64,000 nucleotides of DNA. Origin: Microbacterium sp. CSI-V. GTDB taxonomy: Bacteria; Actinomycetota; Actinomycetes; Actinomycetales; Microbacteriaceae. The stretch is taken from contig NZ_MTQM01000009.1 in assembly GCF_001984105.1 (NCBI RefSeq), positions 620,001 to 684,000 of the forward strand, given 5' to 3'. The position numbers and the translations under genes are program-made. The notes beneath the pieces were generated by a model. That model did not search any database. It saw only the letters and a program-made list of their open reading frames with translations, and was not told the origin of the DNA. Numbering within the stretch: the stretch's first letter is position 1; every line of letters begins with the position of its first letter. Positions 48,505 through 53,182 of the stretch are shown piece after piece.

Positions 48505-48756
48505 TCAGTAGTGCGGCGGGACGTCGCGCAGCAGCTGCGCGTCGTTGGGACCGGATGCCGCGGGCGCGGCGGGGCGCTCCCGGGTGGTGTCGTCCCCGGG
48601 CACCGGTTCCGGGCTCGTGCCGGGTGCGGGGAGCAGACGTGCGCGCCGCGCACCCCGCACGCGGACGATCGGCTGCCGGATCTCGGCCGAAGCTGGCGCA
48701 GCCGTGTCCGGCACGTCGGGATCGGTGGCATCCGGGGTCGGGGCCACCGCACTCAC
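48505..48756 (-). CDS. Hypothetical Pro/Asp-rich protein (83 aa) coupled to the helicase-like gene
   Basis: An 83-aa, probably disordered protein (MSAVAPTPDATDPDVPDTAAP at the start). It has one ordered-looking segment, IRQPIVRVRGARRARLLP, and a tail ending AQLLRDVPPHY. No family is recognised. Its GTG start shares bases with the TGA of the large helicase-like gene (GTGA), which argues strongly that it is real and co-translated. The basic IVRVRG patch could contact nucleic acid or the partner protein; that is speculation. Confidence 0.65.
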   Translation of the reverse strand: MSAVAPTPDATDPDVPDTAAPASAEIRQPIVRVRGARRARLLPAPGTSPEPVPGDDTTRERPAAPAASGPNDAQLLRDVPPHY

Positions 48757-51700
48757 CCGTTCAGGTCGAGGGGTTCGGTGGTCGTGCCAGGGGCGGCGGA
48801 GTCGTCCGGGGCGGCGCCGAGGAGCTCTGCGATCCGGGATGCCACACCCGCGGGGTCGCTGTACAGGTCGAACGCGTGGACGCGCACATAGTGCCAGCCC
48901 AGGCGACGAAGGATCTGCGGGCGCAGACGCAGGGTCTCGCGCAGCGACTCCCCGATCGTCTCGGGGTCGCTCTCCGCCACCACGGCCTTGCCGCCATAGC
49001 GGGCGACCAGGGGCAGCAGGCCGCGGTAGTCGAGGTCGACCTCGATGCCGAGACGTCGCAGCTCGCGGGCGAGCGCACGGGTGAGCGGATCCGCCAGATC
49101 CTCCAGACGCGCGTCGCGACCGCGCCCGGCCAGGTTGCCGAGGATCCCCATGAGGGTCGCGGCGCCGTGCTCGAGGCGGCCGTCGTCGAACGCCGACGGA
49201 CGGATCGACGAGACGATCACCATGGACCGACGGGCACGCGTCATCCCGACGGTGAGGAGCCGCTCGCCGTCCGGGGTCGAGAGGTCGCCGAAGTCGCTCA
49301 GCACGCGGCCGTGGCGCGTGAGCCCGAAGCCGAGCGAGAACACGACGCGGTCGCGGCTCTCGGCCACGGACTCCTCGAGCGTCAGCACGGCGAAAGGCTC
49401 GGCGGCATCCCGCGAGACGAACGCGGCGACATCGGAACGCCCGGCGAGTGCCGCCTCCACCGCCGCGCGGACACGCTCGGCGTGCCTGCGGCTAGCGGTG
49501 ACTACCATGAGCGACTCGGAGGCGCGGTTCACCGCGTGCTCGACCACCAGGGTCACCACGCGGGCGACCTCGGCATCCGGGCTCTCCACGGCGCCGCTGA
49601 CCGGGTCGGGCGCGCCGACGCCGTTCTCGACGTAGTCGACGCTCAGACTGCCGCGACCCAGGAACGAGCCGGCCCACGGCAACGACACGATCTCGCCGCC
49701 ATAGAACGCGTCGTTGACGAGCTGCGCGAGGTCTTCGCCGCCCGCGCGGTAGCTGCGGGTCAGCGTCTCGACGGGCAGCAGCTCGGCGATCCGCTCGAAC
49801 ACCGACACCCCGTCGAATGGAACGTCGTCGGCCTCGTCGTCCACGGCCGGCGCGAGCGACGCGCTGACCCGGAACGGCGTGGGCTTCTGCACGACGGGGT
49901 CGCCGAACAGCACGACCTGGCGGGCCCGGAGGAGCGCCGGCGCCGCCTCCGCGAGACACAGGGCCGCGGCATCCGCGATGATCACCGCGTCGAAAGCGAG
50001 ATCGATCGGGACGTCGGGAACCTCGTACGGGGATGCCAACCACACCGGCGCGAGCGTGCGGAGCAGCGTGGGCGCGGCATCCGAGATCTCCTGCGCGGTG
50101 TGCAGGCCGTCCTTGAGCGAGCTCTTCAGCGCTGCCGCTTCGTCGGGATGATCGACGATGCCGATGCGCCACTGCTTCGCGAGTTCGGCCGCAAGAACCG
50201 GACCGGCCGCCGCCGCGTGCGCCTCGTCGACGAGTCGGAAGTCGCGCTCGAGGCGATCGACCACCGTGGTGTTCGCGCCCAGGAGCGCGCGATCCGTGCG
50301 CAGGAGGTGTTCGAGCGCCGACTGCCACCACGCGAACTCGAGCTCGTCGCCGACCCGGTCCTCCGGAACGTGGCGCACCGACAGCTCCACGAGGAGCTGC
50401 TCGAGTCCGAGCCGGGCGAGTTCACCGCGCAGCTGCGCGCGCTCGACGAGGTTGTCGAAGAACGTCGATTCGGCTGCGAGACCGGCGAGCGTGCGCACGA
50501 GGACCTGGACCGGGAGCGTCGCGAGCCGGTCGGAGCCCTGGCGGCCGAGGATCTGGTCGAGCTCGCCCAGCATCGCATCCACCCGCTGCCAGCCGACGTG
50601 GACGTCAGCGAGTCCGAGCGGCACCTCGGGTGTGACTCCCGCGTCGACGACGCGCTGCCACTCGGTGCGCTGCTGCTGGATGCGCACGAGCGCCTCGTAC
50701 ATGTCGGGTACGTGGACGCCGGGCCGCACGTACTCCTTCGACAGTCGCTTGAGGCGACGACGGTTGGGGCCACTCATCGCCGAGGAGTCGCGGCGCGGCG
50801 AGTGCGCGTCGATGAGCTCCGCGAGCGGACGCTCGAACACGGTCGGGCTGAAGCGATCGAGCGACTCGCGGATCCCCTGCAGCAGCTTGAGGTAGGCGCC
50901 GAGCTCGGAGACGGTCTGGAACGGACGCATCCGCGTCTGCGCGATGAGCTCGTACCCACGCTCGAGGAGGCGCGGGACGTCCTGCGCGTGCAGCTTGCCG
51001 GCCAGGTCGTGCGCGGCACGGGCGTCTTCGGTCCGCGTGAAGCTCACGCCGTACCAGGGCGAGTCGTCGGGGCCGAAGCGGAACTCGCCCAGCCGCGCCG
51101 CGGTGGCCAGGGCCTTCGCGGCCGCGTCGCGCCGACCGGCGAGCCGCTCCAGGGTGGCGAGATCGAATCGCGCCGACGTGGAGGGAGCCGGGGAAAGGGA
51201 TGCCAACGCGGTCAGGGCCCGGAGCACGTCGAGTGTCGACACGCCCAGCGCCAGGTGCGGCTCGGTGACGGCGGACCGGTAGTCGCGCAGCACCGCGCGC
51301 AGGCGCACGAGCGCGTCGTCGATCTCGGAGACCTTGGGCTGCTCGGCCTTCTCGTTGCGACCGATCGCACGGATGAGGTCGCGGCGCACGTGGGTCGGAG
51401 ACACCGCAAGGCCCGTCAGACCGACACCGGCGAGGCGGTGACGGATGCCGTCGAGCGTGGAGCGGCGCGCACTGACCACCAGCACGCGCTTGCCGGCGTG
51501 CACGCACTGGCCGATCGCGTTGATGACCGTCTGGGTGCCGCCCGTACCGGGAAGCGTGTGGACCGCGAGCGAGTGACCGGCGGCGATCCGGGCGAGGACG
51601 CGTTCCTGCTCGGCATCCGCGTCGAGAAGAAGGGTGTCGGCCGCGGGGGTGCGCTCGTCGGGGCTCGTGACCACCGGATCGGCGCGACGGACCGTGATCC

Positions 51701-52484
51701 GGGCACGATCGTCGGGGTGCCCGGCGAGGGCGTTGAGCAGCGGATCGTCGAGGTGCTCCGCGGCGCGCGCCATGCCGGAGCCGACGTCGGCGAACGACGA
51801 GATGACCAGGCGCGGGTGCACCACGAACGTCGGGACGTGCGTCGTCAGCCGGCGAAGGTGGTCGATGACCGGCTGCGGCTTGAAGACGCCCTGGTCGTAC
51901 GCGAGGCCCGCGAGGGCCGTGCTGTCGACCGAGATACCGAGATGCGTGCGGAAGGCGCGCGCCAATTCGGGGTTCATCACGAAGGCGCCGTGCAGCTTGA
52001 GCTCGAAGTCGCCGTTGTGGCGGCGGATGGCGAGCGGCCGCAGCAGCACGGGGGCCGACCACTCCACTCCCCCGATCTTCCACGCGGCGAGCCCCACGGC
52101 CAGGTGCACCGGCTCGAGACCGCGCGCGGTGCGCAGTTCGACGTTCTTCGCCGTGATGCGCTCGGCGGCGATCCGCGCGGTGCGCAACGCCACCTCGTCG
52201 CGGAAGAGGTTGGAGAGCAGAGTGGCGCGACCGGTGATGAACTGCGGCAGGGAGCCGGGGTGCGCCTTGGTGATGTCGATCCCCGCGTCGACCGCGTCGT
52301 CGAACCGCAGGAGCGTGGAACGACCGCCGAGGGCGGCCGCTTCCGTGCGGATGCGGTCGCGTTCGGGGTCGGCGACGTGACGAACCACGATGCCGGGCTC
52401 CGACAGTCGCAGCTCGCCCGGATCGATCGACGTCGGAACGTCGCCTTCGGCGCCCGTCACGACGCCGTCCTCAGCTCGCCACAC
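48753..52484 (-). CDS. DUF4011/SF1 helicase-like protein with degenerate ATPase motifs
   Basis: A 1243-aa protein. The N-terminal region (about 35-190: LPQFITGRATLLSNLF to APVLLRPLAIRR and NPELARAFRTHLGI) matches DUF4011. An SF1 helicase core and a C-terminal nuclease-like domain (LRRLGIEVDLDYRG to LGWHYVRVHAFDLYSDP) follow. Walker A reads PGTGGTQT, where PGTGKTQT is expected, so the Lys is lost. Walker B reads VIIADAAALC, where VIxDEAS is expected. Motif VI (LTVGMTRARRSM) persists. The nuclease core lacks the usual Asp. GTG 52484 follows TAGTCT by seven bases. The protein is full length and unbroken, so loss of catalysis looks selected. Confidence 0.85.
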   Translation of the reverse strand: MWRAEDGVVTGAEGDVPTSIDPGELRLSEPGIVVRHVADPERDRIRTEAAALGGRSTLLRFDDAVDAGIDITKAHPGSLPQFITGRATLLSNLFRDEVALRTARIAAERITAKNVELRTARGLEPVHLAVGLAAWKIGGVEWSAPVLLRPLAIRRHNGDFELKLHGAFVMNPELARAFRTHLGISVDSTALAGLAYDQGVFKPQPVIDHLRRLTTHVPTFVVHPRLVISSFADVGSGMARAAEHLDDPLLNALAGHPDDRARITVRRADPVVTSPDERTPAADTLLLDADAEQERVLARIAAGHSLAVHTLPGTGGTQTVINAIGQCVHAGKRVLVVSARRSTLDGIRHRLAGVGLTGLAVSPTHVRRDLIRAIGRNEKAEQPKVSEIDDALVRLRAVLRDYRSAVTEPHLALGVSTLDVLRALTALASLSPAPSTSARFDLATLERLAGRRDAAAKALATAARLGEFRFGPDDSPWYGVSFTRTEDARAAHDLAGKLHAQDVPRLLERGYELIAQTRMRPFQTVSELGAYLKLLQGIRESLDRFSPTVFERPLAELIDAHSPRRDSSAMSGPNRRRLKRLSKEYVRPGVHVPDMYEALVRIQQQRTEWQRVVDAGVTPEVPLGLADVHVGWQRVDAMLGELDQILGRQGSDRLATLPVQVLVRTLAGLAAESTFFDNLVERAQLRGELARLGLEQLLVELSVRHVPEDRVGDELEFAWWQSALEHLLRTDRALLGANTTVVDRLERDFRLVDEAHAAAAGPVLAAELAKQWRIGIVDHPDEAAALKSSLKDGLHTAQEISDAAPTLLRTLAPVWLASPYEVPDVPIDLAFDAVIIADAAALCLAEAAPALLRARQVVLFGDPVVQKPTPFRVSASLAPAVDDEADDVPFDGVSVFERIAELLPVETLTRSYRAGGEDLAQLVNDAFYGGEIVSLPWAGSFLGRGSLSVDYVENGVGAPDPVSGAVESPDAEVARVVTLVVEHAVNRASESLMVVTASRRHAERVRAAVEAALAGRSDVAAFVSRDAAEPFAVLTLEESVAESRDRVVFSLGFGLTRHGRVLSDFGDLSTPDGERLLTVGMTRARRSMVIVSSIRPSAFDDGRLEHGAATLMGILGNLAGRGRDARLEDLADPLTRALARELRRLGIEVDLDYRGLLPLVARYGGKAVVAESDPETIGESLRETLRLRPQILRRLGWHYVRVHAFDLYSDPAGVASRIAELLGAAPDDSAAPGTTTEPLDLNG

Positions 52485-52660: not shown

Positions 52661-53182
52661 ATGAGCACAGCCACCAGCACCGTCTACGACGGCCCGTTCG
52701 CCCCGATCCTGCTGACCTTCGTCGACGACGCGCTCGTCCATCTCGACGTCGCGCACGACGGCGTCGACGTCGCCCGCGCCGAGATCGCGCACCGTCTCGG
52801 TGTCGTCCCCGACCCCGATCCCGCCCACGACGCGCTCGCACAGCTGGACGAGTACTTCGACGGGCGACGCCGGACCTTCGAGATCCCGCTCGACTGGCGT
52901 CTGGTGGGCGGCTTCACGCGCGCGGCGTTGCAGGCGACCCGACGTATCCCCTACGGCGAGGTCGCCTCGTACGGCGAGGTCGCGATCATGGCGGGCTCAC
53001 CGGGTGCGGCGCGCGCGGTGGGCACGGCGTGCGCGAACACGCCGTTCTCGATCGTCGTGCCCGTCCATCGCGTCGTGCGTGCGGACGGCTCCATCGGCGA
53101 GTACGGCGGTCATCCCGAGGTGAAGCACTTCCTGCTCGACCTCGAGAACGGCGTCGCCGACAGATTGCGCGCCCCGGCGTAG
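52661..53182 (+). CDS. MGMT/Ogt homologue lacking the acceptor cysteine (alkyltransferase-like)
   Basis: A 173-aa protein with an MGMT N-terminal domain and a complete C-terminal DNA-binding domain: GGFTRAALQATRRIPYGEVASYGEVAIMAGSPGAARAVGTACANTPFSIVVPVHRVVRADGSIGEYGG...KHFLLDLE. The active-site PCHRV is PVHRV (GTC at about 53063, residue 135). The base-flipping Tyr and the Arg finger in RAVG remain. It should bind O6-alkylguanine but not accept the alkyl group, as in alkyltransferase-like proteins, where Trp or Ala usually replaces Cys. GAGGGA precedes the ATG. It is divergent from the helicase-like gene. Confidence 0.88.
   Translation: MSTATSTVYDGPFAPILLTFVDDALVHLDVAHDGVDVARAEIAHRLGVVPDPDPAHDALAQLDEYFDGRRRTFEIPLDWRLVGGFTRAALQATRRIPYGEVASYGEVAIMAGSPGAARAVGTACANTPFSIVVPVHRVVRADGSIGEYGGHPEVKHFLLDLENGVADRLRAPA

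What the first reader, a model, noticed from the sequence alone, without database searches (positions are those of the whole stretch)
52661..53182. MGMT homologue with Val in place of the alkyl-acceptor Cys
Known alkyltransferase-like proteins carry Trp (sometimes Ala) at this position. Val with an otherwise complete DNA-binding domain, including Tyr and Arg finger, would be a new variant.
Basis: partly seen in the sequence, partly recalled or inferred. Interest (0 to 1): 0.6.

Follow-up and report, generated by a model that had tools for sequence, protein, structure and literature searches.

The report
Genus-wide cysteine-less alkyltransferase homologue
Every Microbacterium genome examined carries a full-length relative of a DNA-repair enzyme that has lost the cysteine needed for repair and a second key residue, yet the gene is nearly always kept intact, so the protein probably senses or binds damaged DNA rather than mending it.

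Summary
The 173-aa ORF at 52661-53182 is a two-domain MGMT/Ogt homologue with PVHR (GTC, 53063-53065) in place of PCHR. It is neither a sequencing error nor a lone oddity: all 35 Microbacterium genomes of one search carry the gene, with Val (30) or Ala (5) there; one copy is frameshifted. A careful tree puts the Val/Ala proteins in one clade with a PCHR protein as sister. More than one residue changed. The Asn hinge (human N137) is Thr/Ser in 53 of 53 Val/Ala proteins and Asn in 44 of 44 Cys proteins; human P140 is Ser/Thr in 53 of 53. Tyr114, Arg128, His146, Lys165 and Glu172 are kept in all 53; mean dN/dS is 0.13-0.35. Losing both Cys and hinge is what alkyltransferase-like (ATL) proteins did, but these keep the N-terminal domain that ATLs lack, without Trp. 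It is an independent, full-length, ATL-like derivative of Ogt. Most likely mechanism (inferred): non-catalytic binding of O6-alkylguanine and hand-over to excision repair, beside a separate PCHR enzyme seen in 34 of 35 genomes. Against this, the protein is acidic and its DNA-binding domain has lost most excess positive charge. New variant of a known kind.

The parts
52661..53182 (+). Cys-less two-domain MGMT/Ogt homologue (173 aa)
   Evidence: AlphaFold2 model pLDDT 93.4, pTM 0.86; aligned to M. tuberculosis OGT-DNA complex 4wx9, Z 21.5, rmsd 1.6 over 150 residues
52679..52894 (+). N-terminal ribonuclease-like domain (PF02870, residues 7-78)
52913..53149 (+). DNA-binding / active-site domain (PF01035, residues 85-163)
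52970..52972 (+). Tyr104 (human Y114), base-flipping Tyr, kept 53/53
53012..53014 (+). Arg118 (human R128), arginine finger, kept 53/53
53030..53032 (+). Cys124 (human M134), only Cys of the protein; Cys in 53/53 Val/Ala rows
53039..53041 (+). Thr127 in place of the Asn hinge (human N137)
53048..53050 (+). Ser130 in place of pocket Pro (human P140)
53063..53065 (+). Val135 in place of the acceptor Cys (human C145)
53144..53146 (+). Glu162 (human E172), triad Glu, kept 53/53
48753..52457 (-). Divergently transcribed neighbour: SF1-helicase-like protein with a weak C-terminal REase-like match (start codon not settled); neighbour only, no functional link shown

Best explanation
A full-length Ogt-type alkyltransferase gene in the ancestor of Microbacterium (or acquired by it) lost its alkyl-acceptor Cys (to Val, later to Ala in one branch) together with the Asn hinge, and was then kept as a non-catalytic protein. 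Most likely it still flips O6-alkylated guanine into its pocket using Tyr104 and Arg118, cannot dealkylate it, and acts as a damage flag for UvrA-dependent excision repair, as ATL proteins do. The genome keeps a separate PCHR alkyltransferase for direct repair. Shown: loss of Cys and hinge, one clade, genus-wide retention under purifying selection, a predicted two-domain fold, presence of a PCHR paralogue and of UvrA. Inferred: no alkyl transfer, the direction of change (Cys to Val to Ala), lesion binding, hand-over to excision repair.
For: Val/Ala at the acceptor in 35 of 35 Microbacterium genomes. Val/Ala rows form one clade, 100/92 support, in 100% of 200 bootstrap trees, with the four diagnostic columns removed. 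Asn hinge T43/S10 in 53 of 53 Val/Ala rows against N in 44 of 44 Cys rows. E. coli YbaZ (the E. coli ATL) also lacks the Asn (Leu there) and has PWHR, and a review states that ATLs lack the Asn hinge (PMC10779285 section 3.5). Tyr114, Arg128, His146, Arg147, Lys165 and Glu172 equivalents kept 53 of 53. Mean dN/dS 0.13-0.35 in five Val/Ala sets against 0.19 and 0.27 in two Cys sets (hand-chosen sets); the DNA-binding domain is tighter than the N domain in all five. PCHR copy in 34 of 35 genomes (the 35th, G030, was not examined). Full-length UvrA in the own genome.
Against: Charge: the Val/Ala C-terminal domain has median net charge +1 (29 rows) against +5 (49 Cys rows), and whole-protein pI is 4.9 against 8.8. 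The 33 PCHR copies read in the same genus lie between +1 and +8 (median +5) against a median of 0 for 54 Val/Ala loci on a second measure, so this is not merely genome composition (the 54 include near-duplicates). E. coli YbaZ is +4, pI 9.9. So DNA binding may be weak or need a partner. ATL-specific features (Trp, C-terminal extension, no N domain) are absent. No gene link to excision repair was found; the neighbour is a core family gene.
Confidence: 0.5

Rival explanations
1. Pseudoenzyme with a new role that no longer depends on binding O6-alkylguanine in DNA, for example a regulator or a protein partner. The fold is kept, but the pocket and DNA surface serve another ligand or a protein contact.
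For: Loss of most of the excess positive charge of the DNA-binding domain; the human Gly161 position is His35/Arg14/Asn2/Gln1/Asp1 of 53 where all 44 Cys rows have Gly, and the human P140 position is Ser/Thr, so the active-site loop and pocket are remodelled.
Against: Base-flipping Tyr and Arg finger are invariant in 53 of 53, which would be odd if DNA were not flipped; the C domain is more constrained than the N domain.
Confidence: 0.33
2. Relocated acceptor: the conserved Cys124 (human M134 position, recalled to line the guanine pocket) takes the alkyl group instead of residue 135.
For: Cys124 is the only Cys of the window protein and is Cys in 53 of 53 Val/Ala rows, although the site is Cys in only 13 of the 26 non-Microbacterium relatives read.
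Against: Cys at this site is common among PCHR relatives (24 of 25 near ones) and is present in the outer neighbours L075 and L076 on the tree (weak node, 48/88), so it is probably inherited, not gained with the Cys loss; the sister L056 has Met, so the history is not settled. From recalled structure the site faces the ring, not the O6-alkyl group. No coordinates were available to measure it.
Confidence: 0.06
3. Lesion shield: it binds O6-alkylguanine without recruiting repair and merely competes with the PCHR enzyme, or tunes its access.
For: Same sequence evidence as the best explanation; no partner has been identified.
Against: Hard to reconcile with genus-wide retention unless it is beneficial (inference).
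Confidence: 0.09
4. Decaying gene or sequencing artefact.
For: One copy (G001) is split by a frameshift.
Against: 34 of 35 genomes have a copy without that defect; dN/dS 0.13-0.35; invariant functional residues.
Confidence: 0.02

Closest known systems
Ogt/AGT (methylated-DNA--[protein]-cysteine S-methyltransferase), e.g. M. tuberculosis OGT 4wx9; TIGR00589
   Same: Two-domain fold, Z 21.5, rmsd 1.6 over 150 residues, 39% identity; TIGR00589 86.6 bits, cut-off 46.4; Tyr, Arg finger, His, Lys165, Glu172 kept.
   Different: No acceptor Cys (Val/Ala), no Asn hinge, Ser for P140; acidic.
ATL proteins: E. coli YbaZ (L214), S. pombe Atl1 (3gx4)
   Same: Acceptor Cys lost, Asn hinge lost, Tyr and Arg finger kept.
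   Different: Val/Ala not Trp; N-terminal domain present; no C-terminal extension; acidic not basic; in the C domain far closer to PCHR Ogt (58 of 82 identical to L056, 28 of 65 to YbaZ). Structural match to 3gx4 covers only the C domain (Z 7.3).
T. thermophilus TTHA1564
   Same: Annotated as an ATL in an organism without other agt homologue (PMC7216122 passage); interacts with an excision-repair protein (title in a reference list). Recalled, not checked: Ala at the acceptor.
   Different: Its domain make-up and residue could not be checked here, so it is a possible precedent for part of this finding.
Solirubrobacterales MAG protein L056 (PCHR)
   Same: Nearest relative on the tree (98/86), shares Ser at the P140 position.
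   Different: Has Cys and Asn hinge; presumed active.

Membership tests
AGT/Ogt alkyltransferase (enzyme) | Homology to PF01035 and two-domain fold | tested here: met
   (fold from a predicted model)
AGT/Ogt alkyltransferase (enzyme) | PCHR acceptor Cys | tested here: not met
   Val/Ala in 53 of 53 rows of the clade
AGT/Ogt alkyltransferase (enzyme) | Asn hinge | tested here: not met
   Thr/Ser in 53 of 53; Asn in 44 of 44 Cys rows
AGT/Ogt alkyltransferase (enzyme) | Alkyl transfer | not testable with these tools
   needs an assay
ATL protein | No acceptor Cys | tested here: met
ATL protein | Tyr and Arg finger kept | tested here: met
   53 of 53
ATL protein | Asn hinge absent | tested here: met
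   53 of 53; YbaZ has Leu; PMC10779285 section 3.5
ATL protein | No N-terminal domain (PMC10779285 section 3.5) | tested here: not met
   PF02870 present; fold match over residues 3-173
ATL protein | Trp at the acceptor (most ATLs) | tested here: not met
   Val/Ala
ATL protein | C-terminal extension loop | tested here: not met
   The YbaZ tail has no counterpart in the alignment; sequence alignment only
ATL protein | Tight O6-alkylguanine binding and UvrA contact | not testable with these tools
   UvrA is present in the own genome; interaction not testable

The most novel reading that the evidence does not exclude
A second, independent evolution of an ATL-type damage flag from a complete two-domain Ogt, by joint loss of the acceptor Cys and the Asn hinge, fixed at the base of Microbacterium, with Val then Ala instead of Trp. 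The retained N-terminal domain and acidic surface would make it recruit repair in a way different from known ATLs.
Probability: 0.45. Interest if true: 0.6.

Novelty: new variant of a known kind. Interest (0 to 1): 0.45.

Why it matters
If true, the Cys-to-sensor switch in the alkyltransferase family happened more than once, and the joint loss of the Asn hinge marks it as a rule rather than an accident. It offers a natural series (Cys relative, Val, Ala) in one fold to test what makes an enzyme into a damage flag. In practice, the protein passes the TIGR00589 cut-off and so is likely to be annotated, across a genus, as a methyltransferase that it cannot be by the usual mechanism.

Tried and rejected
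Sequencing error or pseudogene: rejected for the clade.

But the helicase-like gene is in 149 of 150 Microbacteriaceae genomes, and the 28 non-Microbacterium loci of it that I read show no alkyltransferase homologue in their 1.5-kb flanks. So it was there first, and adjacency is no evidence of joint function.

Spread beyond Microbacterium: the P-V/A-HR pattern in 396 genomes of the phylum gave 6 with a match, 4 of them Microbacterium; the other two (L092, L097) hold no homologue above the score cut-off used. A PVHR match in G085 (L089) lies in an antiporter-like gene by my reading and holds no homologue above the cut-off. A profile search of 396 genomes (355 with a match): of the 30 loci it gave, 26 are not Microbacterium and all 26 have Cys and the Asn hinge; lower-ranked matches were not read. 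The patterns demand HRV-x-R-x-DG, and the pattern with any residue at the acceptor matched only 131 of 299 genomes of the family, so other non-Cys types could be missed. Other phyla were not surveyed, apart from the few distant loci and the plasmid and phage listings, whose acceptor residues I did not read except for H39.

Val-type loci L047, L053 and L055 come from MAGs labelled otherwise, but their helicase-like neighbour carries the Microbacterium-type motif (HGRVLSDFGDL, PDGERLLTVG), so I count them as Microbacterium or close kin.

SOS-type boxes: in 112 upstream regions no exact GAAC-N4-GTTC; 9 loci have it with one mismatch, the window's own region among them (twice, as L003 and L093) and two Cys loci; not pursued.

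Rows dropped before counts: 112 proteins were at hand, 16 left out (near-identical loci, doubles of the window's and another genome's copy, the frameshifted L111, the short L055, and L105, picked up by a wrong motif) and the window added, giving 97. The 78-row tree is a chosen subset plus 26 phylum loci, with 4 columns removed. The 97-row tree kept the acceptor column. The charge list also shows +7 for the fragment of the frameshifted G001 copy, read in a stretch that takes in out-of-frame letters.

Papers: searches. No held paper joins 'alkyltransferase-like' with 'valine' and 'active site cysteine' or with 'actinobacteria', nor 'Microbacterium' with the terms. The library is open-licence only, so absence is weak. 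Four key ATL papers were not held. Passages of PMC3788762 and PMC3950489 added nothing on the acceptor residue.

Full report
What is there. The ORF 52661-53182 (+) encodes 173 aa with both domains of an Ogt-type alkyltransferase. Residue 135, where the alkyl-acceptor Cys belongs, is Val (GTC, 53063-53065). The AlphaFold2 model, made from a 38-row alignment, has pLDDT 93.4 and pTM 0.86. It aligns along its length with M. tuberculosis OGT: the DNA complex 4wx9 at Z 21.5, rmsd 1.6 over 150 residues. The known ATL structures match only its C-terminal domain (3gx4, Z 7.3; 2kif, Z 7.8).

It is conserved. One search covered the own genome, 34 of the same genus and 23 of the order; 56 of 58 matched. 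In all 35 Microbacterium genomes the best homologue has Val (30) or Ala (5: G008, G013, G015, G018, G025) at the site (recount). In a sample of 299 genomes of the family, the pattern P-x-HRV-x-R-x-DG matched in 131 genomes and gave Val in 6 of 6 Microbacterium genomes. Outside that genus the matches were Cys except for one Val match that is chance (G085) and six with Pro, Arg, Glu or Asp, of which I checked only L062 (no homologue above the cut-off). In 396 genomes of the phylum, the 26 non-Microbacterium loci that a profile search gave among its best all have Cys.

It forms one clade. A careful tree of 78 proteins, with columns 124, 127, 130 and 135 removed, gives a Val/Ala clade with support 100/92, present in 100% of 200 bootstrap trees. 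Its sister is a PCHR protein from a Solirubrobacterales MAG (98/86), itself on a long branch. The 97-row tree needs two changes in all: between Cys and Val, and between Val and Ala. The direction is inferred.

More than the Cys changed. Human numbering follows the alignment. Asn137, the hinge, is Thr (43) or Ser (10) in 53 of 53 Val/Ala rows and Asn in 44 of 44 Cys rows. Pro140 is Ser (52) or Thr (1); three of the 44 Cys rows, L056 among them, also have Ser there. Gly161 is His, Arg, Asn, Gln or Asp in all 53 and Gly in 44 of 44. Tyr114, Arg128, His146, Arg147, Lys165 and Glu172 are kept in 53 of 53. In the phylum sample the 26 Cys loci read all have the Asn. E. coli YbaZ, the E. coli ATL, read here from a plasmid record between ybaA and ybaY, has PWHR and Leu at the hinge (the name YbaZ is recalled from its place between these genes, the record calls it MGMT family protein). 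The review by Tessmer and Margison (PMC10779285; outline with abstract, passages, the first part of section 3, section 3.5 and section 4 seen) says that ATLs lack the N-terminal domain, mostly carry Trp, and lack the Asn hinge. So the joint loss of Cys and hinge parallels ATLs, but in a two-domain protein.

It is under selection. Mean dN/dS in five sets of Val/Ala genes is 0.13, 0.23, 0.35, 0.13 and 0.23, and in two Cys sets 0.27 and 0.19 (NG86, hand-chosen sets). The C-terminal domain is lower than the N-terminal one in all five (one set one gene smaller).

Against simple DNA binding. The Val/Ala C domain has median net charge +1 (range -1 to 4, 29 rows) against +5 (2 to 11, 49 Cys rows); whole-protein pI is 4.92 against 8.77. 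On a second measure, 54 Val/Ala loci (near-duplicates included) have median 0 (range -2 to 5), while the 33 PCHR copies read in Microbacterium lie between 1 and 8, 24 of them between 4 and 6. YbaZ is +4. This is the main result against an ATL-like role.

Setting. A PCHR paralogue was seen in 34 of 35 Microbacterium genomes: 33 (own included), G010 through L112; G030, 77% complete with one match, was not examined. UvrA is full length in the own genome. The gene lies divergent from a helicase-like gene in 36 of 37 Microbacterium genomes whose flanks were read. That neighbour is a core gene of the family (149 of 150) and stands without an alkyltransferase homologue in 28 other loci, so I draw no functional link.

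Mechanism. Shown: residues, predicted fold, one clade, retention. Follows from established knowledge of the family: without the acceptor Cys the usual transfer cannot occur. Inferred: lesion binding and hand-over to UvrA. Confidence 0.5; the strongest rival is a repurposed protein that no longer depends on lesion DNA (0.33).

Novelty. I found no description of a Val-type or genus-wide full-length Cys-less homologue in the held papers, but the main ATL papers are not held, and T. thermophilus TTHA1564, recalled to have Ala, could be a partial precedent.

Noticed in passing
window 48753-52457 (-); L033-L055, L118-L147: Helicase-like core gene of Microbacteriaceae (149 of 150 genomes). Its Walker A Lys is replaced by Gly (LPGTGGTQT) in all 50 loci of 53 in which the long frame was found, and no Walker B DE pair was found in them. 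It looks like a conserved pseudo-helicase; sub-cut-off matches to REase MTES_1575 and NCBIfam ProA/Hhe, and a match to PADLOC PDC-S37.
   Followed up: partly
G001:C5:1191200-1192900 (L111, L212): The Cys-less gene of one Microbacterium genome is split by a frameshift; the Val and Thr signature is still readable.
   Followed up: partly
L055 (JAGQTK010000002.1), also L047 and L053: MAG contigs labelled Microthrixaceae or Actinomycetes carry the Val-type gene and a helicase-like neighbour with Microbacterium-type motifs; at least the Microthrixaceae label may be a binning or naming error.
   Followed up: partly
L095 (G220): A strongly diverged Val-type copy (branch 0.66, Thr at position 130); the only one whose flank was read that shows no helicase-like gene beside it.
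   Followed up: no
G016:C44:4600-5451 (L213): A short contig of a Microbacterium MAG holds fragments of the Val-type gene on both strands, beside the intact copy on another contig (L010); perhaps an assembly artefact.
   Followed up: no
G000:C4:213827-216082: A second UvrA-like gene in the own genome, below the uvrA cut-off in pieces.
   Followed up: no
window 52661-53182: The protein exceeds the TIGR00589 cut-off (86.6 against 46.4 bits), so automatic annotation would probably call it a cysteine methyltransferase although the acceptor Cys is missing.
   Followed up: no
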